Assembly: GCF_001921215.1 (NCBI RefSeq)
Contig: NZ_MSIF01000001.1
Location: 558,001-622,000, forward strand
DNA length: 64,000 nucleotides
DNA from: Actinophytocola xinjiangensis
Lineage (GTDB): Bacteria > Actinomycetota > Actinomycetes > Mycobacteriales > Pseudonocardiaceae
Direction: 5' to 3'
Within the stretch, counting starts at the first letter, position 1; the number at the start of each line of letters is the position of its first letter. The notes beneath the pieces are model-generated. The model did no database searches and was not told where the DNA came from. It was given only the letters and a program-made list of their open reading frames with translations. Positions 33,535 to 47,017 of this stretch are shown piece after piece. A program made the translations under genes and the position numbers.

Positions 33535-34281
33535 CACGGCGTTGGCCTCCGGCAGGACCTCCCGGGCGATCAGCACGCCGCCGACGAACGCCACCGGCAT
33601 CACGATGATCGCGGCGAACGGGATCAGGCACAGCAGCGTGGTCGTCAGCCCGAGCCCGAGGGCCAGGCCGCGCCGGGTGCGCAGCAGCTTGCGGCCCTGG
33701 GTGAGGTCCAGGCCATGACGGTAGAACGACACCGCCGCCAGCTCCAGCGCCAGGAACCACGCGGTCACCAGCATCAGCAGGACCGGCACCACCGTCTGAC
33801 CCAGGACCGGGATGAACCCGGCGATCAGCAGCGGGATCGTGAACAGCAGCGACCGCAGCACGAGTGCGAGACCGTCGCGTAACCCCAGCCACAGCAACCG
33901 TCCGCCGGACAGCTCGACGCGCCCCGGCGGGTCACCGAGGCCCTCGGCGACCTTCTCGGCGATGGACTCGTAGAACGGGCCGCCGATGGCGAGGGTCAGC
34001 GCCATGAAGCTGATCATGCCGATCACCAGCGACGCCGCGACCAGCGTGACCCCGACCAGGACCCGCACGACCGCCCGCAGACCGCTGGCCCAGTCGTCGG
34101 CGAACGGTGTGACCAGCGCGGCCAGGTCGTCGATCCGCAGGATCAGCGCCACCATGCCGCCGAGCAGCAGCAACGCGGTCAGTACCGCGGGCGCCGCGCC
34201 CAGCAGCAGCAGTCGGGGTGACCGGAGCATGATGCCCAGTCCCTGGCCGAAAAATCGGACACCAGTCATGAAATCTCGCAC
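33517..34281 (-). CDS. EI24 domain membrane protein (CysZ-like)
   Basis: A 254-residue integral membrane protein with about five hydrophobic segments and the EI24/CysZ loop pattern GGPFYESIAEKVAEGLGDPPG. CysZ members carry sulfate; the role of actinobacterial EI24 proteins is unknown. I chose GTG 34281 because relatives start with MRDF and GAAAG-like bases lie before it; ATG 34269 is the alternative and an upstream extension to 34332 looks spurious. The gene contains a TTA codon at 33880-33882. It is unrelated to the catabolic genes on the plus strand. Confidence 0.82.
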   Translation of the reverse strand: MRDFMTGVRFFGQGLGIMLRSPRLLLLGAAPAVLTALLLLGGMVALILRIDDLAALVTPFADDWASGLRAVVRVLVGVTLVAASLVIGMISFMALTLAIGGPFYESIAEKVAEGLGDPPGRVELSGGRLLWLGLRDGLALVLRSLLFTIPLLIAGFIPVLGQTVVPVLLMLVTAWFLALELAAVSFYRHGLDLTQGRKLLRTRRGLALGLGLTTTLLCLIPFAAIIVMPVAFVGGVLIAREVLPEANAVSAGAA

Positions 34282-34793
34282 GGGGAACTTTCTACCAGTA
34301 TGGCGCCTGGGCCAGGGCGGCGGAGCACCCACGGTGTCCGGTTCGGATCGGTGCGGGCCGGAGTGGCATTCCTATAAATGAGGGCCGGGCTTACTTCGAA
34401 TGGGCCAGCGACCCTTTTCGTGCATTTGGCGTACTTTCCCGTGGTTAACATGAAGAACTTTTTGGTTTGGTATGTGTTTCACCTCACGTCGACTTACTTT
34501 GTTGGCGCGACGTGGCCCTCGTTGTCCCAGGATGTTGATCGATCAACCAAGAATGGATGCCGGTGCGATAGGGCAAATGGATGAATTGGAGCGTCTGTTC
34601 AGCCCCAGGTGTTGCATGGTGGGCCTTGTTGCCACACTTCTTGCGGCATGGTAAAACGTGCAGCGCAATCCGCGCCGAGACATGGTGCGCTGTATTTGGG
34701 TGGCTGAAGGAGAACGTCGGCGATGAGGCGATCCGCCCCTTCGAAGGATCAACCATGCTTACCGACTGAGGTCGGTTTGGGGGAATCGGCGCG
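34282..34793. other. AT-richer intergenic region before the biosynthetic cluster
   Basis: Some 510 bases without a convincing gene. From about 34371 to 34700 the sequence is visibly richer in A and T than the rest of the window. It contains TATAAA (34373-34378), a perfect palindrome at 34534-34547 and a small hairpin ACCGAC-TGAG-GTCGGT (34761-34776) just before the ribosome site of the first cluster gene. Several short open frames exist, among them a 25-codon one at 34577-34654 ending in AAW and a 62-codon one at 34581-34769. Their third-codon positions lack the strong GC bias seen in real genes here and their ribosome sites are weak, so I do not call them. Confidence 0.6.
34534..34547. promoter_or_regulatory. 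Perfect 14-base palindrome, candidate operator
   Basis: GTTGATCGATCAAC reads identically on both strands. It lies about 250 bases upstream of the first biosynthetic gene (34794), inside the AT-richer region, and also upstream of the divergent EI24 gene. Its symmetry and place suggest a dimeric regulator site. No regulator gene is encoded in the cluster, so the binding protein would lie elsewhere. A 14-base perfect palindrome is rare by chance in a region this size, but chance cannot be excluded. Confidence 0.4.
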
Positions 34794-36104
34794 GTGAACG
34801 TCGTTACCCAGCGCTACCTTGCCGCCTGTTCGGACCATGACTCCGGTCTACGGCATGCCGCACGTGATCTCGCTCTGCCGGAGGTGTATCGGACCTCCTA
34901 CGGCGGACTCCAGCTCGACCGGCCGATGCTGGCCCCCGAGTCGGAGATCACCGGGTTCGGCGCGTCCCTGGTTGACCTGTTCGACCTCCTGGTCTCGTTG
35001 CCCGCCCGGGTGAGCGGCGGCGACCTACGCGGATACTGCGCCAGGCTCGGCATGGACGACCGCCTCGCGGACCTGGCGTGCCGTGGCGACCGACACGACC
35101 TTCCGGTGTACGCCCGCGCGGACGCCTACCACGACGGCAACGGATTCCAGCTCCTTGAGCTGAACGTCGGCAGCGAACTGGGCGGCATCGACACGGCCCA
35201 GGTCAACCGCGCCTTCCTCCAGGTCCCCGCGTTCGCCGACTTCGCCGAGCGACACGACCTGCGTCACCTGGACACCCTGCCCAGAACCGCGCGCGCCCTG
35301 CGCACGGCGGCCCGGGAGGTCACCTCCGGCGAACCGGTGATCGCGCTGATCGAGAGCAACGGTGGTCTCGCCGCCCACCAGCACGTCTTCGTCGCCATCC
35401 AGGAGGCGATGGCCGGACTCGGCATCGTCCTGCTGCTCGGTGAGCTGGACGAACTGGGTGAACGCGCCGGCAAGGTCACCCTGCGCGGCACCCCGGTCGA
35501 CGTCATCCTGCGGTACTTCGTCGCCGGCGAACTCGTCGACGACCCGGCCGGGCAGCGCGTCCTGGACCTGGTGCTCCGAGCGCGGGACACCGTGCTGTTC
35601 GCCCCGCTCAGCGCCGCGGCCTTCGCCAGCAAGGGCAGCCTCGCGATGCTGCACGAGCCCGACGTCGCCGGCACGCTCTCGGCCGGGGAACGCGCGTTGG
35701 TCGACCGGATCGTGCCGTGGACACGCCTGCTCGCCGGCGCCGACCCCGAGCTGGTCGAACGCTGTCGCGACGAACGCGAAGAACTGGTCCTCAAGCCGGG
35801 AATCGGCTACGGCGGTGTCGGCACCGTCGTCGGTCACGAGGTGTCCGACGAGGAATGGCACCACGCACTCGCCGAACGGACCACCGGCGACCACGTCGTC
35901 CAGCGACGGGTCCGCCCGGCCACCGAGTCCGTGATGGACGCGGACACCGGCGCCATCGACGAGTGGGTCGCCAACTGGGGGATCTTCGTCGACGCCGACG
36001 GGTACGCCGGCGGTTTCGTGCGGGCACTGCGGCCCGAGCACGGTGCTGTCGTGTCCTATTCGAACAAGGGCACCCGGGGCACCTGCGTCTTCACCGCGCC
36101 CTAG
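34794..36104 (+). CDS. ATP-grasp-like ligase, glutathionylspermidine-synthase-like C-terminus
   Basis: A 436-residue protein, first gene of the cluster. The C-terminal half has LVLKPGIGYGGVGTVVG, a glycine-rich ATP loop, and GDHVVQRRVRP, followed by NWGIFVDADGYAGGFVRAL, the arrangement seen in glutathionylspermidine-synthase-like and other circularly arranged ATP-grasp proteins. Earlier, FQLLELNVGSELGGID could be part of the substrate or metal site. It probably activates a carboxylate with ATP and joins it to an amine. The GTG start has GGGGGA nine bases upstream. I cannot name the family exactly. Confidence 0.66.
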   Translation: MNVVTQRYLAACSDHDSGLRHAARDLALPEVYRTSYGGLQLDRPMLAPESEITGFGASLVDLFDLLVSLPARVSGGDLRGYCARLGMDDRLADLACRGDRHDLPVYARADAYHDGNGFQLLELNVGSELGGIDTAQVNRAFLQVPAFADFAERHDLRHLDTLPRTARALRTAAREVTSGEPVIALIESNGGLAAHQHVFVAIQEAMAGLGIVLLLGELDELGERAGKVTLRGTPVDVILRYFVAGELVDDPAGQRVLDLVLRARDTVLFAPLSAAAFASKGSLAMLHEPDVAGTLSAGERALVDRIVPWTRLLAGADPELVERCRDEREELVLKPGIGYGGVGTVVGHEVSDEEWHHALAERTTGDHVVQRRVRPATESVMDADTGAIDEWVANWGIFVDADGYAGGFVRALRPEHGAVVSYSNKGTRGTCVFTAP

Positions 36105-36194
36105 CCCAGATCCGCCAAACAGCACCGAGACACCCCTCCGAAGCGTGCCCCTCGTCGGGCCGTCTTCGGCTGCTCGCGGAAGGGAGCTGTGTCC

Positions 36195-37454
36195 ATGGCA
36201 GATTCGCCGACCGGCGACACCCGTGCACACGTCGTCGTCATCAACCGATGGCGTGAGCACTACGCCGAGTACGCCGGCTATCTCGACCACCAGACACACC
36301 GCGTGACCTACATCAGCACCTCGGTCGGCCTCGGCTCGGTGCCGGACACGGCGGCCGACGTGGTCCTGGTCGAGGCCACCGACGATCTCGACGAGGCCCG
36401 CGCCGCGCTCGCCGAGCTGGTGCGCCGGCACGGCCGGCCACATCGGATCGTCGCGCTCAAGGAGGACGACCTCCTGGTCGGGGCACAGCTGCGCGCCGAC
36501 CACGACGTGCCGGGCGACCGGCCGGCCGACCTGGTCCGCTTCCGCGACAAGTTCCTGATGTGCCAGGCGATCGAGGCCGCCGGAGGGCCGGTGCCGCGGT
36601 TCGCCGCTGTGGACGGTCCCGCCGGGATCCTCGACCTGGCCGACCGGGCCGGCTGGCCGCTGGTGCTCAAACCGAGGGTGGGCAGCTCCAGCGCCGGCGT
36701 GGTGCTGCTGACCGGGCTGTCCGACGTCGCCGAGCTGGCGCCGTTCACCGAGCCGATGATGGTCCAGGCGTTCAACCCGCATCCGATCCACCACGTCGAC
36801 GGCGTCTTCACCGGCACCGGGCTCGACCGGTGGCGGGTGTCGCGGTACGTCAACACCTGTCTCGGTTTCCGCGAGGGCACCGTGCTCGGCTCGGTCGAGG
36901 AGGACGACCCGGAGGTCGTCGCGGCCGTCGGGGCGGCGGCCGCCGCGTTCCTCGGCGCGCTCACCGACGCCCCCGTCCCGTTCCATCTCGAGGTCTTCGT
37001 CGAACGCGGCCCCACCGGGGTCTCCTGCTCGTTCCTGGAGGTCGGGGCCCGCGTCGGCGGCGCGGAGATCCCGTTCATCTGGCGTGACCTGCACGGCTGG
37101 GACCTGATGCGCGTCGCCTTCGACCTGCAGATGCGTGCCACGCCGCGACCGCCGGGCCGGGAGACCGGCGAGGCCGGCGGCTGGCTGCTGGTCCCGGCCC
37201 CCGCCACCCGACCGTGCGTGATCACCGAGGCGACCCCGATGGTCGGCCGGGAACCCGGCCCGTACGCCGAGGTCCTGCTCAGCCCGGGGGAGGTGCTGCC
37301 CGACGCCGACGCCTACTACGAGCACGTCGGCGGCCGGTTCCGCTTCCGCGGCCGGACCACCGCCGACGTCGAGGCCGCCCTGATGGCCACCGCGGCCGAG
37401 TTCCGGGTGCACGCCGAGCCCACCACCGCACACCTCCAGGAGATGACCCGATGA
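36195..37454 (+). CDS. ATP-grasp amino-acid ligase
   Basis: A 419-residue ATP-grasp protein. RDKFLMCQAIEAAGGPVPRF starts the ATP-grasp core near residue 115, WPLVLKPRVGSSSAGVV is the lysine-glycine ATP loop, and SFLEVGARVGG carries the metal-binding acid and asparagine-like position. This layout matches ligases that make amide bonds between amino acids or acids and amines. ATG 36195 was chosen over GTG 36189 because GGAAGGGAG is eight bases away. Its stop overlaps the dioxygenase ATG. With the genes at 34794 and 44581 the cluster encodes three such enzymes, so several amide bonds are probably formed. Confidence 0.85.
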   Translation: MADSPTGDTRAHVVVINRWREHYAEYAGYLDHQTHRVTYISTSVGLGSVPDTAADVVLVEATDDLDEARAALAELVRRHGRPHRIVALKEDDLLVGAQLRADHDVPGDRPADLVRFRDKFLMCQAIEAAGGPVPRFAAVDGPAGILDLADRAGWPLVLKPRVGSSSAGVVLLTGLSDVAELAPFTEPMMVQAFNPHPIHHVDGVFTGTGLDRWRVSRYVNTCLGFREGTVLGSVEEDDPEVVAAVGAAAAAFLGALTDAPVPFHLEVFVERGPTGVSCSFLEVGARVGGAEIPFIWRDLHGWDLMRVAFDLQMRATPRPPGRETGEAGGWLLVPAPATRPCVITEATPMVGREPGPYAEVLLSPGEVLPDADAYYEHVGGRFRFRGRTTADVEAALMATAAEFRVHAEPTTAHLQEMTR

Positions 37455-38167
37455 GGGACTACAACGAACAGATCCTCTCGGGCGACGGTGTCGACGACTA
37501 CGCCCGCTACATGCGCACCGACACGCTGCTGTCGTTGCAGCGCGGCCCGGACGAGGTGATCCACCGCGACGAGCTGCTGTTCCAGGTGGTGCACCAGTCC
37601 AGCGAGCTGTGGCTCAAGCTGGTGTGCTCGGAACTGTGCGAGGCCGCGGTCAAGGTGCGCGACGGTGACCCGGTGGCCGCGGCCGGCCTGCTGGCCCGCT
37701 CCTCGCTGGGCATCCACCTGGTGACCGAGCAGCTGGAGATGTTCCGGTTCCTGTCCCCGTGGGACTTCCAGACCATCCGGACCGTGCTCGGCCACGGTTC
37801 CGGTGCGGACTCGCCGGGGTGGCGCTCGGTGCAGCGCGCCGGCCGCGACCTCGAACGTGCCTTCCACGACTTCGTCGACACGCGCGGCCTGGACATCGCC
37901 GGCCTGTACCGCGAGGGCCAGGGCAGCCGGGAGCACCAGCTGGCCGAGGCGATGATCGAGTGGGACGAGCGGGTGTCGCTGTGGCGCGTGCGGCACTACA
38001 AGATCGCCACCAGGGTCAACGGCAACCAGACGGTCGGCACCCAGGGGACTCCGGTGGACACCCTGGCCAAGCTGATCGAGTACAAGTTCTTCCCCGAGCT
38101 GTGGGCGGTGCGTACCGAACTGACCTCCAGCGGCCCGATGGGTGACTACCACCTGGCCAGGTCATGA
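37451..38167 (+). CDS. Tryptophan 2,3-dioxygenase family haem protein
   Basis: A 238-residue, slightly short member of the tryptophan 2,3-dioxygenase family. HRDELLFQVVHQSSELWLK holds the distal His48, PWDFQTIR ends in Arg110 that would bind the carboxylate, and LWRVRHYK holds His182, the haem ligand. The usual GPSSGFQS loop is replaced by GHGSGADSPGW, and GTGGS by VGTQGT, so substrate position or product may differ. The normal reaction is L-tryptophan plus oxygen to N-formylkynurenine. It overlaps both neighbours by ATGA and is followed by a second superfamily member at 39294. Confidence 0.87.
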   Translation: MRDYNEQILSGDGVDDYARYMRTDTLLSLQRGPDEVIHRDELLFQVVHQSSELWLKLVCSELCEAAVKVRDGDPVAAAGLLARSSLGIHLVTEQLEMFRFLSPWDFQTIRTVLGHGSGADSPGWRSVQRAGRDLERAFHDFVDTRGLDIAGLYREGQGSREHQLAEAMIEWDERVSLWRVRHYKIATRVNGNQTVGTQGTPVDTLAKLIEYKFFPELWAVRTELTSSGPMGDYHLARS

Positions 38168-39312
38168 CCCCCGAGGACTTCCGCGCGCGTTTCCCGTCGC
38201 TGGGCCGCCGGACCCACCTGGCCAGTTGCAGCCTCGGCGCACGGTCGGTCGACCTCGACGACGCGCTGCACCGGATGCTGGAGGACATGGCCTCCGGCGG
38301 TGCCCCGTGGCAGCTGTTCGAGGAACAGGTCGCCGGGGCCCGTGACCGGTTCGCGGCGCTGATCGGTGCGCGCCCCGACCAGGTCGCCGTCCTGCCCGAC
38401 GCGTCGACCGGGGCGTACCAGGTGGCCTCCACACTGGACTGGACGGGGCGGCCGGGGATTCTCGGCAGCACCCAGGAGTTCCCGTCGATCGCGCACGTCT
38501 GGCTGGCGCAGCGGTCACGGGGGGCGGAGGTCTCGCTGACCGAGGACCCCCACGACCTCGCCGGGATGATCGACGAACGCACCCGGCTGGTGTCGGTGCC
38601 GCTGATCACCTACCAGAGTGCCCGGCGCTCCCCGGTGGAGCAGCTGACGGCGCAGGCGCACGCGATGGGCGCCCGCGTGTTCGTCGACGCCTACCAGGCC
38701 GGTGCCGCCGGGGCGGTCGACGTCCGCGAGCTCGGCTGCGACTACCTGGTCATGGGCACGATGAAGTACCTGCTCGGCCTGCCCGGCCTGGCGTTCCTGT
38801 ACGTGCGGGAACCGGAGCGGACCGACCTGCCGCCCAGCCTCACCGGGTGGTTCGGTCGTACCGACCCGTTCGCCTTCGACCCGACGGCACTGGACTTCGC
38901 GGCCAGCGCCGACCGGTTCCGTGCCGGCACGCCGTCGGTGCCGGCGGCCTACGCCGCGGACGCCGGCCTGCGCCTGATGGGTCTGCTCGACCCGTACGCG
39001 GTACGCGAACACGTCCACGACCTGACAGACCTCGCGATCGAGCGGTTGACCGCCGCGGGTGAGCGGGTCCAGGCCGCCGCGAGGAAGAGTCGCGGAGCCC
39101 ACATCGGCCTGTACGACGCCGATCCGGCGGCCCTGGGCGCCGCGCTGGCGCAGCGTGGTGTCGCGGTCGCGCCGCGCGGCCAGGTCGTGCGGATCTCCCT
39201 GCACTACTACAACAACGCCGAGGACGTCGCCGCGCTGTGCGACGCGCTGGCCGAGCTGCGAGGGGCGGCTCGGGCGACTGACGAAGAGGTCCTATGTGCA
39301 CCCACGAGCTGA
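38164..39312 (+). CDS. Class V PLP-dependent enzyme (aminotransferase/kynureninase-like)
   Basis: A 382-residue class V (fold type I) PLP protein. PDASTGAYQ binds the phosphate, Asp175 in VFVDAYQ pairs with the pyridine nitrogen, and Lys201 in VMGTMKYLLG is the expected Schiff-base lysine. Class V contains kynureninases, cysteine desulfurases and serine-type aminotransferases. It is not a textbook kynureninase by motif, but its position between two tryptophan-dioxygenase-family genes makes a kynurenine-type substrate attractive. The ATG overlaps the dioxygenase stop, and the following gene begins 19 bases before its stop. Confidence 0.82.
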   Translation: MTPEDFRARFPSLGRRTHLASCSLGARSVDLDDALHRMLEDMASGGAPWQLFEEQVAGARDRFAALIGARPDQVAVLPDASTGAYQVASTLDWTGRPGILGSTQEFPSIAHVWLAQRSRGAEVSLTEDPHDLAGMIDERTRLVSVPLITYQSARRSPVEQLTAQAHAMGARVFVDAYQAGAAGAVDVRELGCDYLVMGTMKYLLGLPGLAFLYVREPERTDLPPSLTGWFGRTDPFAFDPTALDFAASADRFRAGTPSVPAAYAADAGLRLMGLLDPYAVREHVHDLTDLAIERLTAAGERVQAAARKSRGAHIGLYDADPAALGAALAQRGVAVAPRGQVVRISLHYYNNAEDVAALCDALAELRGAARATDEEVLCAPTS

Positions 39313-40535
39313 GGCACTGGTTACGCAGTCCACAGCTGCGCACCTTTCCCTTCGACCAGGTGGTCCGACACTTCCACGAGGTCGGCAAACACTTCGTCGC
39401 GGCTGAGCTGCTCGACCTGCTCGCCAGGGCGCGCCAGCTGCTGCCGTCCCTGCCGGGTCCGTGGCCGCAGCTGCGGACGCTGGCGTCCTTCCTCGACACG
39501 GCGTTGGACAAGCCGGACGGACGGTACGACTACGGCACCTACCTGGGACTCTCGCTGCTCCAGGTGCCCCATGTGGACGATCCGGTCGAACAGGCCCCGT
39601 TCGCCAGGACCCGCTGCGACCGGCTGAGCGCACAGCTGCTGGCCGACGCGCTGGCCTTCGAACTGGTCGCCGCCGAGGAGGGCGCGACGCTGCTGCCCGC
39701 GATGCGCCCGGCCCCGGACCTGGTCACCAAACGGCACAAACACGGTCTGCGGGTGCTGCGGCCGATCCTGGTGCGGATGAACCTCGAACGCGCGCTGACC
39801 GGCACCGCGCCCGAGGAACTGGCACGGCAGGCGGCCGACGCGGTCCACGCCGACATGTCGATGACCGAGCAGCGGGCGATCCAGCTCAGCGTGCTGCCGG
39901 TGTACACCGCGCACGACGAGTACCTGTTCCTGCGCGTGCTGCAGACGTTCGAGACGACGTTCGCGCTGCTGGCCGTCCAGCTGCGGGCGGTGATCGCCGC
40001 GTTCGCCGAACGGCGGGTCGACGAGGCGGTGCACTTCCTGTCGGTGTCGGCCACCGCGCTGTCCGAGTCCGCGCCGCTGTTCTCGATGCTGGCCACCATG
40101 CAGGTCGAGTCGTTCCGCACCTTCCGGCAGTTCACCGAGGGCGCGAGCGCGATCCAGTCCACCAGCTACAAGATCCTCGAGTCGCTGTGCCGCCGGCCGG
40201 ACGAGGACCGGCTCGACTCACCCGCCTACCACTCCGTGCCTCCGGTGCGTCAGCGGGTGCTCGACGGACAGGCCACCCTGGACGACGCCTACCGGGAGGC
40301 CGTCGACTCCGGCGACCTCGACCCGCGCGACCACGACCGGCTCGCCGAGGCCATGTCCTCCTTCGCGCACGGGCTGCTGCGCTGGCGCAACACCCACTAC
40401 CGCCTGGCGGTGCGGATGCTCGGCGAGGCGTCGGGCACCGGCTACACCCAGGGCACGCCCTACCTGAACGCGGTGCGGGACATCCCGGTGTTCCGCACCG
40501 TCACGGACACCGAGAACACCGCGAGGACGTCATGA
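39294..40535 (+). CDS. Second tryptophan-dioxygenase-superfamily haem protein (long form)
   Basis: A 413-residue protein whose C-terminal 230 residues follow the haem-dependent aromatic oxygenase pattern: HDEYLFLRVLQTFE at 208-220, FRQFTEGASAIQSTSYKILE at 277-296, and the haem ligand His368 in WRNTHYRLAVRMLG before GTGYTQGTPYL. The distal histidine of tryptophan dioxygenase is Leu216 here, so the reaction probably differs; the superfamily includes PrnB and aromatic-ring hydroxylases. The N-terminal 190 residues are an extra helical part. Codon 10 is TTA (39321-39323), the hallmark of bldA-type control in streptomycetes. It overlaps the PLP gene by 19 bases and the monooxygenase by ATGA. Confidence 0.75.
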   Translation: MCTHELRHWLRSPQLRTFPFDQVVRHFHEVGKHFVAAELLDLLARARQLLPSLPGPWPQLRTLASFLDTALDKPDGRYDYGTYLGLSLLQVPHVDDPVEQAPFARTRCDRLSAQLLADALAFELVAAEEGATLLPAMRPAPDLVTKRHKHGLRVLRPILVRMNLERALTGTAPEELARQAADAVHADMSMTEQRAIQLSVLPVYTAHDEYLFLRVLQTFETTFALLAVQLRAVIAAFAERRVDEAVHFLSVSATALSESAPLFSMLATMQVESFRTFRQFTEGASAIQSTSYKILESLCRRPDEDRLDSPAYHSVPPVRQRVLDGQATLDDAYREAVDSGDLDPRDHDRLAEAMSSFAHGLLRWRNTHYRLAVRMLGEASGTGYTQGTPYLNAVRDIPVFRTVTDTENTARTS

Positions 40536-42148
40536 CAGAGTTCACCGGCCAGGTGGGAATCGTCGGTGCCGGGCCGGTCGGCCTGATCGCCGCCCTGCGA
40601 CTGGCCGACGCCGGCGTGTCCAGCGTCCTGCTGGACGTCAAACCGGAACTGCTCCGGCAGGGGTCCAAGGCCTGCCTCATCCAGGGTGACGTGCTGGAGA
40701 TCCTGGACAGGGCCGGCTGCGCGGCGCCGATCGCCGAGGAGGGGGTGACCTGGACCGTCGCCCGCACCTACGTGCGGAACAAGGTGATGCGCACGACCAC
40801 CTACCCGCACGGCCCCGGCTTCGGCCCGTTCGTGAACATCTCCCAGTACCGCATCGAGCAGGTGCTCGCCGACGCGGTCGCCGCCAACCCCCGCTGTGAC
40901 CTCAGATGGGGTCAGGAGGTCGTCGGCGTCGACCAGGACGACGACTCGGTCTCCGTGCGGGTGCGGGACTCCGGGACGGAGGCGGAGAACACGCTGCGGT
41001 TCGAGTACCTGGTGGCCGCCGACGGCGTGCGGAGCCGGATGCGTGAGCTGATGGGCGCGGACTGGACCGGCTACACCCACGCCGACCGGTTCCTGATCAC
41101 CGACATCAAGGCGAAACTGCCGCTGGCCAAGGAACGACACTTCCACTACGACCCGTCCTTCAACCCGGGCCGCCAGCTCGTGATGCACCCCCAGCCCGAC
41201 GACATCTGGCGGATCGACTGGCAGTTGCCGCCCAACGCCGACGTGGACGCCGAACGCGCCGACGGCCGGTTCGACGAGCGGGTCCGCGCGGTCATCGGAG
41301 ACATTCCCTACGAGGTGGACTGGGTCAGTACCTACCGCTTCCACCAGCGGGTCGTGGCCAGGCTGCGGATGGGCCGGGTGCTGTTCGCCGGCGACGCGGC
41401 GCACTCGTTGCCACCTTACGGCTCACGCGGGATGAACAGCGGTATCCAGGACGCCGACAACCTCGCCTGGAAACTCGGCGCCGTCCTCGGTGGACAGGCC
41501 GACGAGGAACTGCTGGAGACCTACCACACCGAGCGCTACGCGGCGGCCAAGGAGAACCTGCGGGTCACCGAGGCGACGATCCGGTTCATGGTGCCGCCCA
41601 ACCGGCTGCGCCGCTGGACGAGGGCCGTCCTGCTCGCCTTCTCGCACACCCTCGGCCTGGCCCGCGACCGGGTCAACAGCGGCCGGATGGCCGAGCCCTA
41701 CGTCTACGACGACTCGGCGATCGTCCAGCCACAGAACGGAAACCCGCTGCTCGGCGCGTTCGCCCCGGACGCCGTCGCCCGGGTCGAGGGCCGGGCGACC
41801 CGCCTGCGCACGCTGCTCAACCGGACGGGTTTCACGGCGTTGTGCGTCGCCAGCGACGCCACCCGAATCGCCGAACTGGCCCAGCGGGTGAAGGCCATCC
41901 AGGACGACGACCAGGTGCTGGTCGTGGTCCTGGCGAGTGGGGTCAGCGGGTTGGACGAGCCGGACGGGGCCATCGTCGCCGACGTCGACCCGTCGGTGGT
42001 CGAGCTCTACGGCGAAGGCTGGTGGCTGGTCCGCCCCGACGGCCACCTCGCCGCCCGGGGCGCGGTCACCGACGACCCCGCCGACGCACTGCGGTTCGGG
42101 CTCGGCCGCCCCACCCAGCCCGCACTCCTGCTGAAGGGAACCCCATGA
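40532..42148 (+). CDS. FAD-dependent aromatic hydroxylase (class A monooxygenase)
   Basis: A 538-residue flavin monooxygenase. GIVGAGPVGLIAALRLADAG from residue 9 is the FAD loop, Asp164-Gly165 (AADGVRSRM) the second motif, and Gly287-Asp288 in FAGDAAHSLPPYGSRGMNSG the third. The C-terminal 130 residues form the thioredoxin-like extension seen in MhpA, PgaE and related hydroxylases. It would hydroxylate an aromatic ring ortho to a phenol or amine with NAD(P)H and oxygen, for example a kynurenine-like or anthranilate-like ring. Coupled at both ends by ATGA overlaps. Confidence 0.92.
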   Translation: MTEFTGQVGIVGAGPVGLIAALRLADAGVSSVLLDVKPELLRQGSKACLIQGDVLEILDRAGCAAPIAEEGVTWTVARTYVRNKVMRTTTYPHGPGFGPFVNISQYRIEQVLADAVAANPRCDLRWGQEVVGVDQDDDSVSVRVRDSGTEAENTLRFEYLVAADGVRSRMRELMGADWTGYTHADRFLITDIKAKLPLAKERHFHYDPSFNPGRQLVMHPQPDDIWRIDWQLPPNADVDAERADGRFDERVRAVIGDIPYEVDWVSTYRFHQRVVARLRMGRVLFAGDAAHSLPPYGSRGMNSGIQDADNLAWKLGAVLGGQADEELLETYHTERYAAAKENLRVTEATIRFMVPPNRLRRWTRAVLLAFSHTLGLARDRVNSGRMAEPYVYDDSAIVQPQNGNPLLGAFAPDAVARVEGRATRLRTLLNRTGFTALCVASDATRIAELAQRVKAIQDDDQVLVVVLASGVSGLDEPDGAIVADVDPSVVELYGEGWWLVRPDGHLAARGAVTDDPADALRFGLGRPTQPALLLKGTP

Positions 42149-43092
42149 CCACCGCACCGCCGTACGCCTGGCAGAACGGCCGCATCGTCGCGTGGGACGA
42201 CTGCGTCGTCCACGCCCGCAGCCAGGGCGCGTTCTGGGGCGCGAACGTGTTCGAGGGGGTGCGGGCCTACCTCAACGCCGACGACGGACGGTCCTACACC
42301 TTCCGCGTGCGCGACCACCTCGCGCGGCTGCGCCGGTCGATGAAGAGCCTGCACATGGAGATCGACCACACCGACGACGAACTGGCCCAGGCGTGCTCGG
42401 ACCTGGTGCTGGCCAACGACCTGGGCGTCGACGTGCATGTGTGCGTCGTGGCCTACTTCGACACCGGCCCCAACTTCGACCCGCTGGCGCACACGACCGA
42501 CACCGGCGTGCACATCACCTCCACCGTGGTGCCGCGGTCGCCGGCCTACGAGCGCGGTGTGGCGGCGACCGTGTCGTCCTGGCGGCGGATCAGCGACGAC
42601 GCGATGCCGCCGAGGATCAAGGCGGGCGCGAACTACCACAACAGCCGGCTCGCCCAGCACGAGGCGAAGCGCAACGGCTACGACACCACGTTGCTGCTCA
42701 ACCAGCGCGGCACGGTCTCCGAGGCCCCCGGCTCGTGCGTGGTGATGGTCCGCGACGGCCAGATCATCACCCCGCCCGGCACCAGCGGCGTGCTGGAGGG
42801 CATCACCGTCGCCACGATGGCCGACCTGGCCGCCGAGCACCTCGGCAAGACCGTGCACCGCAGGGAGATCGATCGCACCGAGCTGTACGCGGCCGACGAA
42901 CTGTTCCTGTGCGGCACGATGACCGAGCTGCTGCCGATCACCAGCGTCGACCGGATCCCGGTCGGCGACGGCGTCCGAGGTCCGGTCACCCACGCGTTGC
43001 AGGAGCGCTACGACGAGGTCGTGCGCAACCGGGTCCCCCGGCCGGACTGGTGCACGCCGGTCGAGCCGGCGCGGGCGGAGGTGCCGGCATGA
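42145..43092 (+). CDS. Class IV aminotransferase (branched-chain/D-amino-acid type)
   Basis: A 315-residue class IV PLP enzyme. FWGANVFEGVRAYLN is the N-terminal landmark, Lys159 in PPRIKAGANYHNSRLA is the PLP lysine, and Glu193 in TVSEAPGS is the ring-nitrogen acid. In branched-chain enzymes the last motif is usually SEGSGEN; here APGS replaces GSGE, so the carboxylate pocket is altered. It may transaminate an unusual amino acid or act as a lyase. GAAGGG is a good ribosome site. ATGA overlaps with both neighbours keep it inside the cluster operon. Confidence 0.89.
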   Translation: MTTAPPYAWQNGRIVAWDDCVVHARSQGAFWGANVFEGVRAYLNADDGRSYTFRVRDHLARLRRSMKSLHMEIDHTDDELAQACSDLVLANDLGVDVHVCVVAYFDTGPNFDPLAHTTDTGVHITSTVVPRSPAYERGVAATVSSWRRISDDAMPPRIKAGANYHNSRLAQHEAKRNGYDTTLLLNQRGTVSEAPGSCVVMVRDGQIITPPGTSGVLEGITVATMADLAAEHLGKTVHRREIDRTELYAADELFLCGTMTELLPITSVDRIPVGDGVRGPVTHALQERYDEVVRNRVPRPDWCTPVEPARAEVPA

Positions 43093-43865
43093 GTCACCTG
43101 TTGACCGAGTTGGCGGCCGCGCTGCGTGGCGGCGCGGTCGAGGTCGTCGACCTGACCGCGCCGCTGTCCGAGGACACCCCGATCATCGGCCTGCCGCCCG
43201 AACGTGGCCAGCCGTGGGCCTTCGCCCGCGAGGTGATCAGCAACTACGACGAGGCCGGCCCGACGGTCTACTGGAACAACATCCGCCTCTCCGAGCACAC
43301 CGGCACGCACTTCGACGCGCCAGTGCACTGGTTGTCCGGCAAGGGATCCCAGGACGTCTCCCAGGTCCCACCCGGCCGGCTCGTCGGTCAGGCGGCCGTG
43401 CTCGACCTGCGGGAGCAGGTCGCGCGGGACCCCGACTTCCTGCTGCGCCGCGAGCACGTCGAGGCCTGGATCGCCGAACACGGCCCGTTGCCGGAGAACG
43501 GCTGGCTGCTGTACCGCACGGGGTGGGACGAGCGCGCGGGCGACCCGGCGCGGTTCCTCAACGACCGGCACACGCCCGGCGTCGCCGAGGACTGCGCGCG
43601 CTGGCTGGCCGAACAGACCCCGCTGTTGGGCATCGGCGTGGAGACCGTCGGCACCGACGCCGGCCTCGCCGGCGACTTCGAACAGCCCTACCCGTGCCAC
43701 TGGTTCTTCCACGGTGCCGGCAAGTACGGCCTGACCCAGTTGCGCAACCTGGGTGAGCTGCCCCCGACCGGTGCGATCGTGATCGCCGGCCCGCTGCCGA
43801 TCGTCGGCGGATCGGGCAGCCCGACGCGCGTACTGGCACTCGTGGAGCGACATGCGGGGACCTGA
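43089..43865 (+). CDS. Kynurenine-formamidase-like metal-dependent hydrolase, copy 2
   Basis: A 258-residue PF04199 protein. The metal residues are His70, His74, Asp76 and His80 in EHTGTHFDAPVHW. The same fold in bacteria gives kynurenine formamidase, which removes the formyl group from N-formylkynurenine, the product of tryptophan dioxygenase. The presence of both in one operon is good circumstantial evidence for that step. Sequence differs clearly from the copy at 28997. It ends the first transcriptional block; a palindrome starts at the base after its stop. Confidence 0.88.
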   Translation: MSHLLTELAAALRGGAVEVVDLTAPLSEDTPIIGLPPERGQPWAFAREVISNYDEAGPTVYWNNIRLSEHTGTHFDAPVHWLSGKGSQDVSQVPPGRLVGQAAVLDLREQVARDPDFLLRREHVEAWIAEHGPLPENGWLLYRTGWDERAGDPARFLNDRHTPGVAEDCARWLAEQTPLLGIGVETVGTDAGLAGDFEQPYPCHWFFHGAGKYGLTQLRNLGELPPTGAIVIAGPLPIVGGSGSPTRVLALVERHAGT

Positions 43866-43892
43866 CAGGCGATCGCCTGGGGCCGCTAGGGT
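43862..43892 (+). promoter_or_regulatory. Candidate promoter with a perfect palindromic operator between its boxes
   Basis: CAGGCGATCGCCTG (43866-43879) is a perfect 14-base palindrome directly after the stop of the hydrolase gene. CTGACA (43862-43867) and TAGGGT (43887-43892) on either side are 19 bases apart and resemble -35 and -10 boxes, so a protein bound to the palindrome would block RNA polymerase. It lies about 100 bases before the FMN reductase gene and could drive the reductase, ligase and exporter genes separately. As RNA it would be a short hairpin, so a terminator is the alternative. Confidence 0.4.
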
Positions 43893-43980
43893 CGCTGCGA
43901 CGCGCGGCCGATCCGGGACCGTCCGGTCCTGCCCCCGCTGACCTCAGAACACACCGAACACCAAGGAGTTTCGACCACCG

Positions 43981-44553
43981 ATGGCACCCCGCCTGCACAT
44001 TCTCATCGCCAGCACGCGTCCGCAGCGCTCCGGTGCGGCTGTCGCCGACTGGATCACCGCTGTCGCCAAGGACAGCGGCCTGTTCGACGTACACCTGGTG
44101 GATCTCGCCGATTTCGCCCTGCCGCTGCTCGACGAGCCCAACCACCCGTCCGAGCGGGAGTACACCCAGGAGCACACCCACCGGTGGAGTGCCTCGGTCG
44201 AGTCCGCGGACGCGTTCGTCTTCGTCGCGCCCGAGTACAACTACGGGATCAACGCCGCGTTGAAGAACGCGATCGACTACCTGTTCTTCGAGTGGCAGTA
44301 CAAGCCGGTCGGCTTCGTCAGCTACGGCAACACCTCCGCCGGGCTGCGCGCGCAGCAGATGACCAAGCAGGTGATCACCACGCTGAAGATGGTGCCGGTC
44401 AACGAAAGCGTCGCCATCCACTTCATCGGCACCCACATCGACGAGCAGGGCCGGTTCACCGCCACCGACGCGATGGCCGGTGCGGCCGACGCCATGCTGA
44501 CCGAGCTGCGCAAGCTCGCCGACGCCCTGACGCCCCTGCGCGCCAAGGACTGA
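43981..44553 (+). CDS. NADPH-dependent FMN reductase family protein
   Basis: A 190-residue flavodoxin-like reductase. ILIASTRPQRSG is the phosphate-binding loop for FMN, PEYNYGINAALKNAIDYL is the family signature, and SYGNTSAGLRAQQM lies near the third loop. It reduces free FMN or quinones with NAD(P)H and would supply reduced flavin or remove quinoid products in the cluster. An AAGGAG site lies 12 bases before the ATG, farther than usual. A 115-base gap separates it from the preceding gene, where a possible promoter and operator lie. Confidence 0.92.
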   Translation: MAPRLHILIASTRPQRSGAAVADWITAVAKDSGLFDVHLVDLADFALPLLDEPNHPSEREYTQEHTHRWSASVESADAFVFVAPEYNYGINAALKNAIDYLFFEWQYKPVGFVSYGNTSAGLRAQQMTKQVITTLKMVPVNESVAIHFIGTHIDEQGRFTATDAMAGAADAMLTELRKLADALTPLRAKD

Positions 44554-44580
44554 CCCAACACCGCGACGGAGGGCCCGACA

Positions 44581-45798
44581 GTGGATGAGATCGTCGTGGT
44601 CGGCAGCGGCGGACAGCCGTACCGGGAGTACGCCTTCGAGGCGCTCGCCGGTCGGTTCCGCGTGTCGGCGCTGCTGGCCGCCGAACCCACCTGGCAGCGG
44701 CCCTACCTGGCCGAGTGGGCCGTGGCCGACCTCGGGAACGAGGTCGGCGTCGTCGAGGCGTTGTCCACGTTGACCGGGCGTGGTGCCGGAGTCCTGACCT
44801 GGGACGAGACCGCGCTGGAGATGACGGCCGCCGCGGCGGAGAAGTTGTCCCTGCGGCACATGTCCCGTGCCGGCGCGGCCCACTGCCGGGACAAGCACGA
44901 CACCCGGCGGCTGTTGGCCGAGGCGGGGCTGAACCCGGTTCGGCACGCACTGGTGCACACCCCGGACGAGGCCGTGCGCTGGGCGAGCGGTGTCGGGTTC
45001 CCCGTGGTGGTGAAGCCGCGGGCGCTGGCCGGCAGTATCGGCGTCGCGTTCGCCCAGGACGCCGACGCGGTGCGGGCGGCGTTCACGCTCGCGGAGAACG
45101 CCGAGTTCGCGACCCTGCCGACGGGTCACGGCGTGCTCGTCGAGGAGTACCTGGACGGGCCCGAGATCAGCGTCGACAGCGTCGTCGACGACGGTGTGGT
45201 CACCTGCGTCCAGGTCGCCCGCAAACGCCTGGGCTTCGACCCGTACTTCGAGGAGGTCGGGCACCTGGTCGCGCCGTGGACCGACGAGCCGTGGGCCGAC
45301 GAGGTCCGCGAACTCGTCGTGGCCGCGCACACCGCGCTCGGGGTCGACCTCGGCGTGACCCACGCGGAGGTCCGGCTGACCGCGCGCGGGCCACGCCTGG
45401 TCGAGCTCAACGGACGACTCGGCGGGGACCTGATCCCCTACGTCGGGGTCCTGGCCGGTGGCACGGACCTCGTGGTCGCCGCCGCCGAGCTGGCGCTGGG
45501 CCACCGGCCGAGGGTCTCGCCGGACCTGGAGCGCTGCGCCGAGGTGCGGTTCGTGTACCCGCCGCACGACAGTGTGGTCCGCGAGGTCGACCTTGGCGCG
45601 GCGGCGGCGGTCCCGGGGATCGCGCACACCACCGCGCTGGTCGCGCCGGGAGCCACCCTGCGGCTTCCTCCCCGTCAGGTCATTCCCCGGCTGGCCGCGC
45701 TGGTGGCCACGGGAGCGGGGCAGGCCGAGTGCGCGGTGGCGCTGGACGCCGCCGAGGCCGCGGTGGTCAGCACGGTCGACCCGCTGGTGGACGCCTGA
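44581..45798 (+). CDS. ATP-grasp ligase (L-amino-acid ligase/carbamoyl-phosphate-type)
   Basis: A 405-residue ATP-grasp protein of the L-amino-acid-ligase type. CRDKHDTRRLLAEAGLNPV opens the ATP-grasp domain near residue 101, FPVVVKPRALAGSIGVAFA is the ATP loop, HGVLVEEYLDGPEISVDSV follows, and LVELNGRLGGDLIPY holds the metal-binding Glu and Asn. Such enzymes join two amino acids through an acyl phosphate. The GTG start has GGAGGG seven bases upstream. It precedes the exporter gene with no gap, so its product is probably what the exporter removes. Confidence 0.88.
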   Translation: MDEIVVVGSGGQPYREYAFEALAGRFRVSALLAAEPTWQRPYLAEWAVADLGNEVGVVEALSTLTGRGAGVLTWDETALEMTAAAAEKLSLRHMSRAGAAHCRDKHDTRRLLAEAGLNPVRHALVHTPDEAVRWASGVGFPVVVKPRALAGSIGVAFAQDADAVRAAFTLAENAEFATLPTGHGVLVEEYLDGPEISVDSVVDDGVVTCVQVARKRLGFDPYFEEVGHLVAPWTDEPWADEVRELVVAAHTALGVDLGVTHAEVRLTARGPRLVELNGRLGGDLIPYVGVLAGGTDLVVAAAELALGHRPRVSPDLERCAEVRFVYPPHDSVVREVDLGAAAAVPGIAHTTALVAPGATLRLPPRQVIPRLAALVATGAGQAECAVALDAAEAAVVSTVDPLVDA

Positions 45799-45799
45799 G

Positions 45800-47017
45800 A
45801 TGCGTCCGGTCAACGCCCTCATCGCGACCCACGGACTGTCCTCGTTCGGGCTGGGGCTCGTGTTCCCCTACACCGCGATCTATCTGGCCGACCAGCCGGC
45901 GGTGGGGACCACGGGCGTCGCGATGTTCTACGCGTGCACCGGCGGGGCGAACGTCGTGGTCGCGCTGCTGCTGAGCGCTCACGTGATCCGGTTGCCGAAG
46001 GTCACCCTCGGCGTGCTCGGCACCGTGCTGTGGTTCGCGGGCTACCTGCTGCTGCCCGCCGCGGCGGCGCCGCCGGTCGTGGCGCTGGCCGCGCTGATGA
46101 TCGGCGCCGGCCAGGGCTGCTTCATGGCCGCCATCATCCCGTTGGTCAACGCGCTGGTGACGGCCCAGGAACGACGGTCGGTGTTCGCCCGCCGGTACGC
46201 GGTGTTGAACGTGACCCTGGCGCTGGGCTCGCTGGCGGCGGGCGTGCTGACCCTCGTGCTGCCCAGAACGGTCATCCCGTGGTTCTTCGTGGCGAACGCC
46301 GTGGGCATCCTGCCGATGACGCTCGCCATCGTCGTGGCCGGCCGGCACCTGCCGCCCGAGGAGGACGACAAGGACACCGGCGAGGGCGGGAAGTCAGGCG
46401 GTACCCTGCCGGCGCTCGGGCTGTGGAAGCTGGCGATGCCGGCGGCGGCGTTCCAGCTCGCCGTCTACCTGTTCGGGTACAGCCAGTTCGAGGCCACCGC
46501 GCCGCTGGTGACCGAGAAGCTGATGGGGATGGAACTGGTCACCATCTCGATCATGCTGGTGCTCAACGTCCTGGTGATCGTCGTCGGTCAGCGGCCGATC
46601 ACCCGGCTGCTGGAGAAGCATCCGGAGACGACCGGTCTGCGGTGGACGGTGATCGCCTGGGTCACCGGGTTCCTCGTGGCGGGGGTGTGTGCCTTCGGGC
46701 CCACCGAGGTGAAGTTCGCCGGCCTGCTGGTGTACGCGGCGTTGTTCGCGCTCGGCGAGTGCGCCTACTCGTGCTCGTTCCACCCGTGGCTGATCTCGAT
46801 GGTCCCCGACCACGAGTTGACCAGGGCCAACGCCCTGGTCAACTCGATGATGGGGATCGGCAACTTCACCGGCCCGTCGATCGGCGTCGCGCTCGTGCTG
46901 ACCGGCGACACCAGCGTGGTCTGGTTCGGGCTGGCGGCTTCCTGCACCGCGGTGATGGTGTTGGTCGGGTTGCTGGCCCGGCGGCGGCCGGCCGCCACGG
47001 CGACCCTCCCGGCCTGA
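45800..47017 (+). CDS. MFS exporter
   Basis: A 405-residue major-facilitator transporter with about 12 hydrophobic segments and a central charged loop at about residues 180-205 (PPEEDDKDTGEGGKSGG). It resembles drug- and metabolite-efflux proteins, and its position at the end of the cluster fits export of the product or self-resistance. The ATG lies one base after the ligase stop. Its stop is five bases from the end of the convergent molybdenum hydroxylase gene. Confidence 0.9.
   Translation: MRPVNALIATHGLSSFGLGLVFPYTAIYLADQPAVGTTGVAMFYACTGGANVVVALLLSAHVIRLPKVTLGVLGTVLWFAGYLLLPAAAAPPVVALAALMIGAGQGCFMAAIIPLVNALVTAQERRSVFARRYAVLNVTLALGSLAAGVLTLVLPRTVIPWFFVANAVGILPMTLAIVVAGRHLPPEEDDKDTGEGGKSGGTLPALGLWKLAMPAAAFQLAVYLFGYSQFEATAPLVTEKLMGMELVTISIMLVLNVLVIVVGQRPITRLLEKHPETTGLRWTVIAWVTGFLVAGVCAFGPTEVKFAGLLVYAALFALGECAYSCSFHPWLISMVPDHELTRANALVNSMMGIGNFTGPSIGVALVLTGDTSVVWFGLAASCTAVMVLVGLLARRRPAATATLPA

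What the first reader, a model, noticed from the sequence alone, without database searches (positions are those of the whole stretch)
34794..47017. Unrecognised biosynthetic cluster: tryptophan/kynurenine chemistry plus three ATP-grasp ligases
Seen: eleven co-directional genes, most overlapping, encoding three ATP-grasp-type ligases, two tryptophan-dioxygenase-superfamily proteins, a class V PLP enzyme, an aromatic hydroxylase, a class IV aminotransferase, a kynurenine-formamidase-like hydrolase, an FMN reductase and an MFS exporter. Known: TDO and formamidase turn tryptophan into kynurenine, and ATP-grasp ligases make amide bonds. Inferred: the cluster makes a hydroxylated kynurenine- or anthranilate-derived peptide-like metabolite. 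I know of no cluster with this gene set.
Basis: partly seen in the sequence, partly recalled or inferred. Interest (0 to 1): 0.86.

Follow-up and report, generated by a model that had tools for sequence, protein, structure and literature searches.

The report
Tryptophan-to-arylglycine peptide gene cluster
A large-genome actinobacterium carries an eleven-gene cluster, shared with scattered relatives, that probably turns tryptophan by way of isatin into an unusual ring-bearing amino acid and joins it into a small peptide; the compound and the route appear to be undescribed.

Summary
In detail: eleven same-strand genes at 34794-47017, six of ten junctions overlapping. One gene changes the chemistry. 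The "formamidase-like" H belongs with isatin hydrolases (5nnb, E 3.5e-73; formamidase 4co9, 0.003). In 13 of 14 H-paralogue loci examined a thiamine-diphosphate enzyme lies beside it, three also with anthranilate-degradation families, as expected for isatin breakdown. This cluster gives no hit to those enzymes; instead a class IV aminotransferase (G) adjoins H. G occurs in 8 of 13 loci holding C-D-E-F-H; all 8 hold ATP-grasp genes or remnants (one a different ligase); the 5 without G gave no hit to six ATP-grasp queries. I propose that two TDO-superfamily proteins (C, E) oxidise tryptophan, kynureninase-like D releases isatin, F hydroxylates, H opens the ring, G makes a (hydroxy)-2-aminophenylglycine, and ligases A, B, J build a peptide exported by K. 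The cluster type is well supported, the isatin step likely, the full route inferred (0.45). Against: C and E are below the TDO cut-off, C keeps TDO-like residues, H lacks the published isatin-hydrolase signature. No match was seen in ten open-access paper searches; MIBiG and antiSMASH were unavailable.

The parts
34794..36104 (+). gene A: circularly permuted, glutathione-synthetase-fold ATP-grasp ligase (436 aa)
   Evidence: PF04174 E 0.0091 (below cut-off); AlphaFold model (pLDDT 73.9, 6 sequences) against PDB: human glutathione synthetase 8fbz E 3.9e-15, also glutathionylspermidine synthetase and YgiC; orthologues 49-69% identical in 5 loci
36195..37454 (+). gene B: ATP-grasp ligase (419 aa)
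   Evidence: NCBIfam ATP-grasp models, best 1.6e-07, no Pfam hit at 0.01; J matches its orthologue at about 30% in L028 and L041
37451..38167 (+). gene C: short TDO-superfamily haem oxygenase (238 aa)
   Evidence: PF03301 74.7 bits (longer reading frame); XcTDO 2nw7 E 1.3e-25; F44, H48, H182 invariant in 14 rows, R110 in at least 90%
38164..39312 (+). gene D: kynureninase-like class V PLP enzyme (382 aa)
   Evidence: PF00266 E 4.9e-32; kynureninase 1qz9 E 1.1e-26; GWFG motif and PLP lysine kept
39294..40535 (+). gene E: long TDO-superfamily haem protein with extra helical N-terminal part (413 aa)
   Evidence: PF03301 61.8 bits; model pLDDT 87.1 matches TDO, then more weakly IDO1 and PrnB; H368 and R278 invariant, distal His replaced by invariant Leu216 in 17 rows
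40532..42148 (+). gene F: FAD aromatic hydroxylase (538 aa)
   Evidence: PF01494 E 9.9e-71; NF006002 522 bits, over its cut-off 416; both on the longer reading frame
42145..43092 (+). gene G: class IV aminotransferase, IlvE-like (315 aa)
   Evidence: PF01063 E 1.2e-46; TIGR01122 245.8 bits against cut-off 245.55
43089..43865 (+). gene H: isatin-hydrolase-like cyclic amidohydrolase (258 aa)
   Evidence: isatin hydrolase 5nnb E 3.5e-73, 50% identical; formamidase 4co9 E 0.003; metal and catalytic residues kept
43981..44553 (+). gene I: NADPH-dependent FMN reductase / azoreductase-like (190 aa)
   Evidence: PF03358 E 4.5e-38; 1t0i E 1.2e-18
44581..45798 (+). gene J: L-amino-acid-ligase-type ATP-grasp (405 aa)
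   Evidence: PF13535 E 1.8e-18; L-amino acid ligase 3vot E 5.9e-21
45800..47017 (+). gene K: MFS exporter (405 aa; start at ATG 45800)
   Evidence: PF07690 E 6.5e-26 (longer frame); orthologues 60-68% in L028, L029, L038, L042

Best explanation
The cluster makes and exports a small amide or peptide around a tryptophan-derived arylglycine. Proposed steps: (1) C oxygenates the indole of L-Trp and E adds a second oxygen, giving 3-hydroxy-2-oxindolyl-alanine (inferred); (2) D, a kynureninase relative, cleaves the side chain between C-beta and ring C3, giving isatin + alanine (inferred; C11H12N2O4 = C8H5NO2 + C3H7NO2 balances exactly); (3) F hydroxylates the aromatic ring, before or after ring opening (family-based; position unknown); (4) H hydrolyses the (hydroxy)isatin to isatinate, an aryl-glyoxylate (supported by homology, conserved catalytic residues and paralogue context); (5) G transaminates that alpha-keto acid to (hydroxy)-2-aminophenylglycine (supported by gene co-occurrence, not by assay); (6) ATP-grasp ligases A, B and J couple it to other amino acids (family-based), I supplies reduced flavin or a reductive step, K exports. 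My odds: biosynthetic, ligase-built product 0.9; H opens an isatin-type ring 0.65; the whole route as written 0.45.
For: H matches isatin hydrolases at 46-50% identity; the characterised ones are 51-59% identical to one another (PMC6117287, passages). The metal motif HTGTHFDAPVHW and the residues matching LaIHA His79, Asp193 and His207 are invariant in 11 aligned cluster proteins (equivalences counted by me from the alignment) and in 29 aligned paralogues. H paralogues (53-65% identical) have a TPP enzyme beside them in 13 of 14 loci fetched (10 one-piece, 1 partial with a small called ORF between, 2 split; exception L142). L134, L140 and L141 also carry a benzoate-type CoA-ligase family and a salicylyl-CoA-hydroxylase/oxidoreductase-like family (both named from L134 and both below their curated cut-offs); the same families lie by the genome's own TDO locus L130. 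Three TPP queries gave no hit in L028-L043, L150 or the window. G is adjacent to H in 8 of 13 C-D-E-F-H loci; all 8 hold ATP-grasp genes or remnants, including Nonomuraea gerenzanensis, whose ligase is only 27.7% identical to J; 0 of 5 loci without G hit six ATP-grasp queries at E 0.01. C and E are short where TDO has alphaF/alphaG: Arg-to-His spacing 72 and 90 against 120 in the genome's own TDO and 83 from the residue numbers given for the 2-oxindole-forming MarE. A C-like gene is near E in 37 of 45 E loci looked at (13 of 16, 20 of 25, 4 of 4), two of them inside NRPS clusters on Streptomyces plasmids.
Against: C keeps a TDO-like GTQG loop, not MarE's SLGGR, and the main TDO active-site residues, so it may be an ordinary dioxygenase. 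H lacks the published signature: GLTQ for GLQC/GLAS, and V60 where LaIHA has Trp59. GLTQ is also in 17 of 29 paralogues and close forms in the other 12, so it does not by itself point away from isatin, but Val for Trp59 is special to this clade (12 of 12 against 0 of 29). No paralogue has been assayed here, so their role in isatin breakdown is itself an inference. The same fold can also do C-C hydrolysis (PMC10470551, passages). D has Gln where the two kynureninase-type sequences compared have His, and Arg after GWFG. D-like genes were found in 9 of 33 genomes with an H paralogue; only in G175 is one within 10 kb of H (in G138 far off on the same contig, in 7 on other contigs). In the H tree the five loci without G group together with weak support (0.446), so the G / ligase association may reflect few independent events. 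The C-E-D'-O-methyltransferase operons are not explained by isatin alone.
Confidence: 0.45

Rival explanations
1. Kynurenine/anthranilate route: C (with or without E) makes N-formylkynurenine, H deformylates it, D cleaves to anthranilate or hydroxyanthranilate, E and F hydroxylate, and the ligases activate the anthranilate or kynurenine.
For: C keeps the TDO active-site residues Phe44, His48, Arg110 and His182 and a GT loop; D's best solved relative is a kynureninase; H shares the metal motif with bacterial formamidase (PMC6117287).
Against: H is far nearer isatin hydrolase than formamidase (3.5e-73 against 0.003) and lacks the formamidase I(L/I)E motif. The route gives G no obvious substrate next to H. 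C and E fall below the TDO cut-off, though so does the genome's own TDO.
Confidence: 0.28
2. H opens a different ring: F first oxidises the aromatic unit and H hydrolyses the resulting cyclic amide or cyclic diketone (C-N or C-C hydrolysis), with G acting on that keto acid.
For: F and H orthologues occur together in 13 of 13 loci that have either, among L028-L043, L150 and the window (a 24% F-like hit in L037 is left out). The isatin-hydrolase fold also includes a dihydrophloroglucinol C-C hydrolase (PMC10470551, passages). The H pocket has changed (V60 for Trp59; Trp after the catalytic His in 11 of 11 aligned cluster proteins).
Against: Paralogues with a TPP enzyme and anthranilate-type genes point to isatin. 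The Ile and Leu that PMC10470551 names as substrate-recognition residues of isatin hydrolase appear kept (PIIGLPP).
Confidence: 0.17
3. A catabolic operon for tryptophan or another aromatic compound, with the ATP-grasp genes as chance neighbours.
For: The enzymes of the C-H part resemble degradation enzymes; flanking window genes include types such as MmgE/PrpD, amidohydrolase and HpcH aldolase.
Against: A, B and J flank the C-H unit in the same order in several genera; the genome has a separate TDO locus and a separate H-paralogue + TPP locus; none of the eleven cluster genes belongs to the anthranilate-CoA families seen elsewhere.
Confidence: 0.06

Closest known systems
MarE (maremycin 2-oxindole-forming haem monooxygenase)
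   Same: TDO superfamily; short where TDO has alphaF/alphaG, by residue spacing; haem His, distal His and Arg kept in C
   Different: C has TDO-like GTQG in place of SLGGR; E lacks the distal His; the cluster has two such proteins; no activity known
Isatin hydrolase (Labrenzia IHA/IHB, Ralstonia IHA)
   Same: metal motif, matching Asp-His-His residues, 46-50% identity
   Different: Val for Trp59 and GLTQ for GLQC/GLAS; sits in a biosynthetic cluster beside an aminotransferase
Kynurenine pathway (TDO, formamidase, kynureninase), including its use in antibiotics such as actinomycin (recalled)
   Same: homologous enzymes for tryptophan oxidation and side-chain removal
   Different: two diverged TDO-like proteins, diverged class V enzyme, isatin-hydrolase-like rather than formamidase-like hydrolase, no NRPS in the cluster
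ATP-grasp dipeptide antibiotics (bacilysin BacD; BL00235-type L-amino-acid ligases)
   Same: J is of this ligase type; MFS exporter beside it
   Different: three unlike ATP-grasp ligases and an aromatic amino-acid module
PrnB (pyrrolnitrin) and IDO1
   Same: E's model aligns over most of its length with PrnB 2v7i and IDO1, but weakly (E about 8e-3) and with large rmsd
   Different: sequence identity about 14-15%; TDO is the better-scoring match

Membership tests
Tryptophan 2,3-dioxygenase (TIGR03036 equivalog) | score over curated cut-off 390.7 bits | tested here: not met
   C 113.1, E 64.1 bits; the genome's own TDO scores 274.8, also below
Tryptophan 2,3-dioxygenase | proximal haem His, distal His, substrate Arg | tested here: inconclusive
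   C: H182 and H48 invariant, R110 nearly so (Gln in L043) in 14 rows; E: H368 and R278 kept, distal His -> Leu216 in 17 of 17 rows
MarE-type 2-oxindole monooxygenase | no alphaF/alphaG insertion | tested here: met
   Arg-His spacing 72 (C) and 90 (E) against 120 in own TDO; MarE 83 from numbering in PMC11904535. By spacing only; C was not modelled
MarE-type 2-oxindole monooxygenase | DATG / SLGGR active-site loops | tested here: not met
   C has HGSG / GTQGT, E has EGASA / GTGYT in the window proteins
Isatin hydrolase | HxG[T/A]HxDxPxH metal motif and His79/His207/Asp193 | tested here: met
   invariant in 11 of 11 aligned cluster proteins; L038 is left out, its frame breaks before the last part
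Isatin hydrolase | aromatic pocket WxW/FxW and GLQC/GLAS signature | tested here: not met
   VxW in 12 of 12 and GLTQ in 11 of 11 readable cluster proteins
Kynurenine formamidase (KynB) | I(L/I)E motif; TIGR03035 cut-off 223.05 | tested here: not met
   GLTQ at that place; 27 bits
Kynureninase (TIGR01814) | hit to the equivalog model | tested here: not met
   absent from D's 15 families at E 0.01; Pfam KYNU_C 19 bits against 27; the relative D' in L043 reaches 74 bits against 246.4
ATP-grasp ligase | ATP-grasp domain or fold in A, B and J | tested here: met
   J Pfam; A by fold; B only weakly by profile
Branched-chain aminotransferase (TIGR01122) | score over cut-off 245.55 | tested here: met
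   G 245.8 bits, barely over; PRK06606 268.5 against 279, not met
Any cluster with known product (MIBiG) | matching characterised cluster | not testable with these tools
   MIBiG/antiSMASH not available; no match in the rows listed by paper searches

The most novel reading that the evidence does not exclude
A new biosynthetic route in which tryptophan is stripped of its alanine side chain by paired TDO-like oxygenases and a retro-aldolase of the kynureninase family to give isatin, and isatin is then opened and transaminated to a (hydroxylated) 2-aminophenylglycine, a new type of arylglycine building block for ATP-grasp peptides. The C-D-E core would be a portable isatin-forming cassette reused in several other cluster types.
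Probability: 0.4. Interest if true: 0.78.

Novelty: new variant of a known kind. Interest (0 to 1): 0.62.

Why it matters
If right, it gives an enzymatic path from tryptophan to isatin and a further path to arylglycines that uses no 4-hydroxymandelate or polyketide precursor (those known routes are recalled). It also offers E, a TDO-superfamily protein without the distal His, as a test case for what decides mono- against dioxygenation, a question that the MarE paper leaves open. The conserved C-D-E cassette is a genome-mining handle for other uncharacterised loci, including ones with NRPS genes and with nitric oxide synthase.

Tried and rejected
Formamidase reading of H: put second on scores and motif. 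D-like genes beside H paralogues as support for D making isatin: looked for in 33 genomes, within 10 kb of H in 1 only (G175), so not used. F's nearest paralogues in five same-genus genomes (41-47% by blastp): they sit near a gene that by eye looks metallo-beta-lactamase-like, which did not name F's substrate. Viral contigs: no relative of E. The VIA-align library was not available. A profile search for ATP-grasp proteins printed unreadable output and is not used; the tblastn part of that call is. The hydrazine-forming haem family (PMC12154649, passages) was considered and dropped: no link found.

Slips: and 86 gene K was translated one base out of frame; K results come only. Genes in fetched loci were called by my own codon-position script, so small genes may be missed. 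B is not found in L032 and its A and J are only fragments; B, D and H of L038 are broken in frame and C of L089 was not called; no letters were put back. Rows dropped before counts: a 24% F-like hit in L037; L038 from the H alignment.
Full report
WHAT IS THERE. Eleven + strand genes, A to K, fill 34794-47017. They are bounded by a reverse-strand EI24-type gene (33517-34332) upstream and a reverse-strand fused molybdenum hydroxylase (47023-51495) downstream. Six of the ten junctions overlap. The genome is 9.5 Mb in 72 contigs. None of the five same-genus genomes has a close relative of E (best 1.8e-5), so the cluster looks like an island rather than genus heritage; its G+C (71.1%) is near that of its flanks (73.1 and 72.0%).

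THE ENZYMES. C and E are both TDO superfamily but score well under the TDO equivalog cut-off (113 and 64 against 390.7 bits); the genome's own full-length TDO, at 274.8, is under it too. C keeps the haem ligand His182, distal His48 and, with an exception in L043, Arg110 (14 rows). E keeps the haem His368 and Arg278 but has an invariant Leu216 where TDO has its distal His (17 rows), and carries about 190 further residues that the model shows as helical (pLDDT 87.1). Its best solved matches are TDOs; IDO1 and PrnB align over more of the chain but weakly and at high rmsd. Both are short between Arg and His (72 and 90 residues; 120 in the genome's own TDO), as MarE is (83, from Arg118 and His201 in PMC11904535; I read its abstract, part 1 of its results and sections 8 and 10). 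D is nearest kynureninase among solved proteins and keeps GWFG and the PLP lysine, but has Gln where the two kynureninase-type sequences compared have His. F is a FAD hydroxylase, G an IlvE-like class IV aminotransferase just over one cut-off and just under another. A, weak by profile, has the fold of glutathione synthetases. J is an L-amino-acid-ligase relative.

H IS THE KEY. H is 50, 48 and 46% identical to three isatin hydrolases with solved structures. From the abstract and passages of PMC6117287: isatin hydrolases share HxG[T/A]HxDxPxH, an Asp-His-His set, a WxW/FxW pocket and GLQC/GLAS; formamidase has I(L/I)E. H keeps the first two, has VxW and GLTQ, and has no formamidase motif. GLTQ is in 17 of 29 aligned paralogues and close forms in the other 12, while all 29 keep Trp at the place of Trp59. 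So GLTQ looks like an actinobacterial form, whereas Val for Trp59 marks the cluster's own clade (12 of 12) and would fit a larger, substituted ring (inference). I then fetched 14 H-paralogue loci (of 35 non-cluster matches, the genome's own second copy among them): 10 have a one-piece TPP enzyme next to H, one a partial copy nearby (L137), two a split TPP enzyme (L136, L138), one none (L142). L134, L140 and L141 also carry CoA-ligase and FAD-monooxygenase/flavin-reductase fusion families like those of 2-aminobenzoyl-CoA degradation (the L134 members score below their curated cut-offs; pathway name recalled), and the same families lie beside the genome's own TDO locus (L130). The simplest reading is isatin -> isatinate -> decarboxylation -> anthranilate; it is an inference, not an assay. 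In our cluster the three TPP queries find nothing and an aminotransferase adjoins H instead.

COMPARATIVE ANATOMY. Fifteen named loci came from one scan of bacterial genomes, one from a related genome (L043), four from plasmid records (one of them, Nonomuraea gerenzanensis, is a chromosome-size record). C-D-E-F-H occur together in 13: the window, L028, L029, L030, L031, L032, L033, L035, L036, L038, L041, L042 and L150. G is in 8 of these (window, L028 Kutzneria sp. 744, L029 Streptomyces antnestii, L032 Actinacidiphila cocklensis, L038 Saccharomonospora, L041 Cellulomonas MAG, L042 Geodermatophilus, L150 Nonomuraea). A, B and J are present, whole or in part, in six of the eight (L041 is cut by its contig end; L038 has frame breaks in B, D and H), present as fragments of A and J in L032, and in L150 there is instead one ATP-grasp protein, 27.7% identical to J and without a hit to A or B. 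The five without G (L030, L031, L033, L035, L036) give no hit to six ATP-grasp queries at E 0.01; ATP-grasp genes too distant for these queries are not excluded. So the C-H unit travels with more than one kind of ligase, which is what an amino-acid-making unit should do. A C-like gene is near E in 37 of 45 E loci looked at. Other loci carry C-D-E without F, G or H (L037), E alone (L034 with two LAL-type ATP-grasps nearby, L039, L040), C-E-D'-O-methyltransferase (11 loci complete in my gene calls: L043, L081-L084, L086-L088, L090-L092, of one unnamed genus, perhaps Micromonospora), C-D-E with nitric oxide synthase (L094, L095 and Micromonospora zamorensis L153; 3 of the 8 C-D-E trios L037, L075, L093-L097, L153) and C-E inside NRPS clusters (L151, L152). 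E relatives at E 1e-30 occur in 3 of 396 genomes sampled over the phylum and 24 of 397 in the order, own genome included.

PROPOSED ROUTE. Trp -> (C, E) 3-hydroxy-2-oxindolylalanine -> (D) isatin + alanine -> (F) hydroxyisatin -> (H) hydroxyisatinate -> (G) 2-amino-hydroxyphenylglycine -> (A, B, J) peptide -> (K) export. Shown: gene content, families, conservation, co-occurrence. Supported by homology and context: H on isatin, G on a keto acid, ligation. Inferred only: the order and products of C, E and D; the place of F's hydroxyl; the final structure. That kynureninase can do retro-aldol cleavage of a gamma-alcohol analogue is recalled, not looked up.

RIVALS AND DOUBTS. C's TDO-like loop and residues leave the kynurenine route open. 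H's fold can act on other rings (passages of PMC10470551). The G / ligase association may rest on few evolutionary events (the five loci without G group in the H tree, support 0.446). D-like genes are not generally near H paralogues. The C-E-D'-O-methyltransferase operon is not explained.

LITERATURE. Ten searches of an open-access full-text library showed, in the rows listed, no paper describing this gene set or isatin-to-arylglycine biosynthesis; 'aminophenylglycine' with 'natural product' gave 0 papers. Some lists were capped (25 of 39, 20 of 151, 25 of 12,197, 15 of 56), and one search's TDO phrase could not match because of a comma. Subscription papers and MIBiG were not covered, so 'undescribed' means only this.

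VERDICT. Interest 0.62.

Noticed in passing
L094:8161-9333, L095:8257-9249, L153:4389-5648: Nitric oxide synthase oxygenase genes near C-D-E trios (one in Micromonospora zamorensis, two in an unnamed genus); in L153 also a globin-reductase gene. Hints at a nitrogen-oxide step in a sister pathway.
   Followed up: partly
L151:989-27040, L152:991-26998: C-E pair inside an NRPS cluster with sulfotransferase, penicillin acylase and acyl-CoA dehydrogenases on large linear Streptomyces plasmids.
   Followed up: partly
L043, L081-L084, L086-L088, L090-L092: A four-gene operon C-E-D'-O-methyltransferase recurs in one unnamed genus (perhaps Micromonospora), mostly with differing neighbours; function unknown.
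   Followed up: partly
L044:10584-11750: Second E-like TDO-superfamily gene of the same genome, beside an O-methyltransferase-like gene and, by eye, ketosynthase-like genes.
   Followed up: no
window 47023-51495: 1490-aa protein fusing the iron-sulfur, FAD and molybdenum domains of a xanthine-dehydrogenase-type hydroxylase in one chain.
   Followed up: no
L034:11300-16797: Kutzneria buriramensis: E orthologue near two LAL-type ATP-grasps, a B12 radical SAM enzyme and an acyl-CoA dehydrogenase-like gene; a different ATP-grasp locus with E.
   Followed up: no
L142:473-1642 and 8494-9279: A D-like class V enzyme (35%) lies about 7 kb from an H paralogue without a TPP enzyme, near genes that by eye look like TRAP transporters.
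   Followed up: partly
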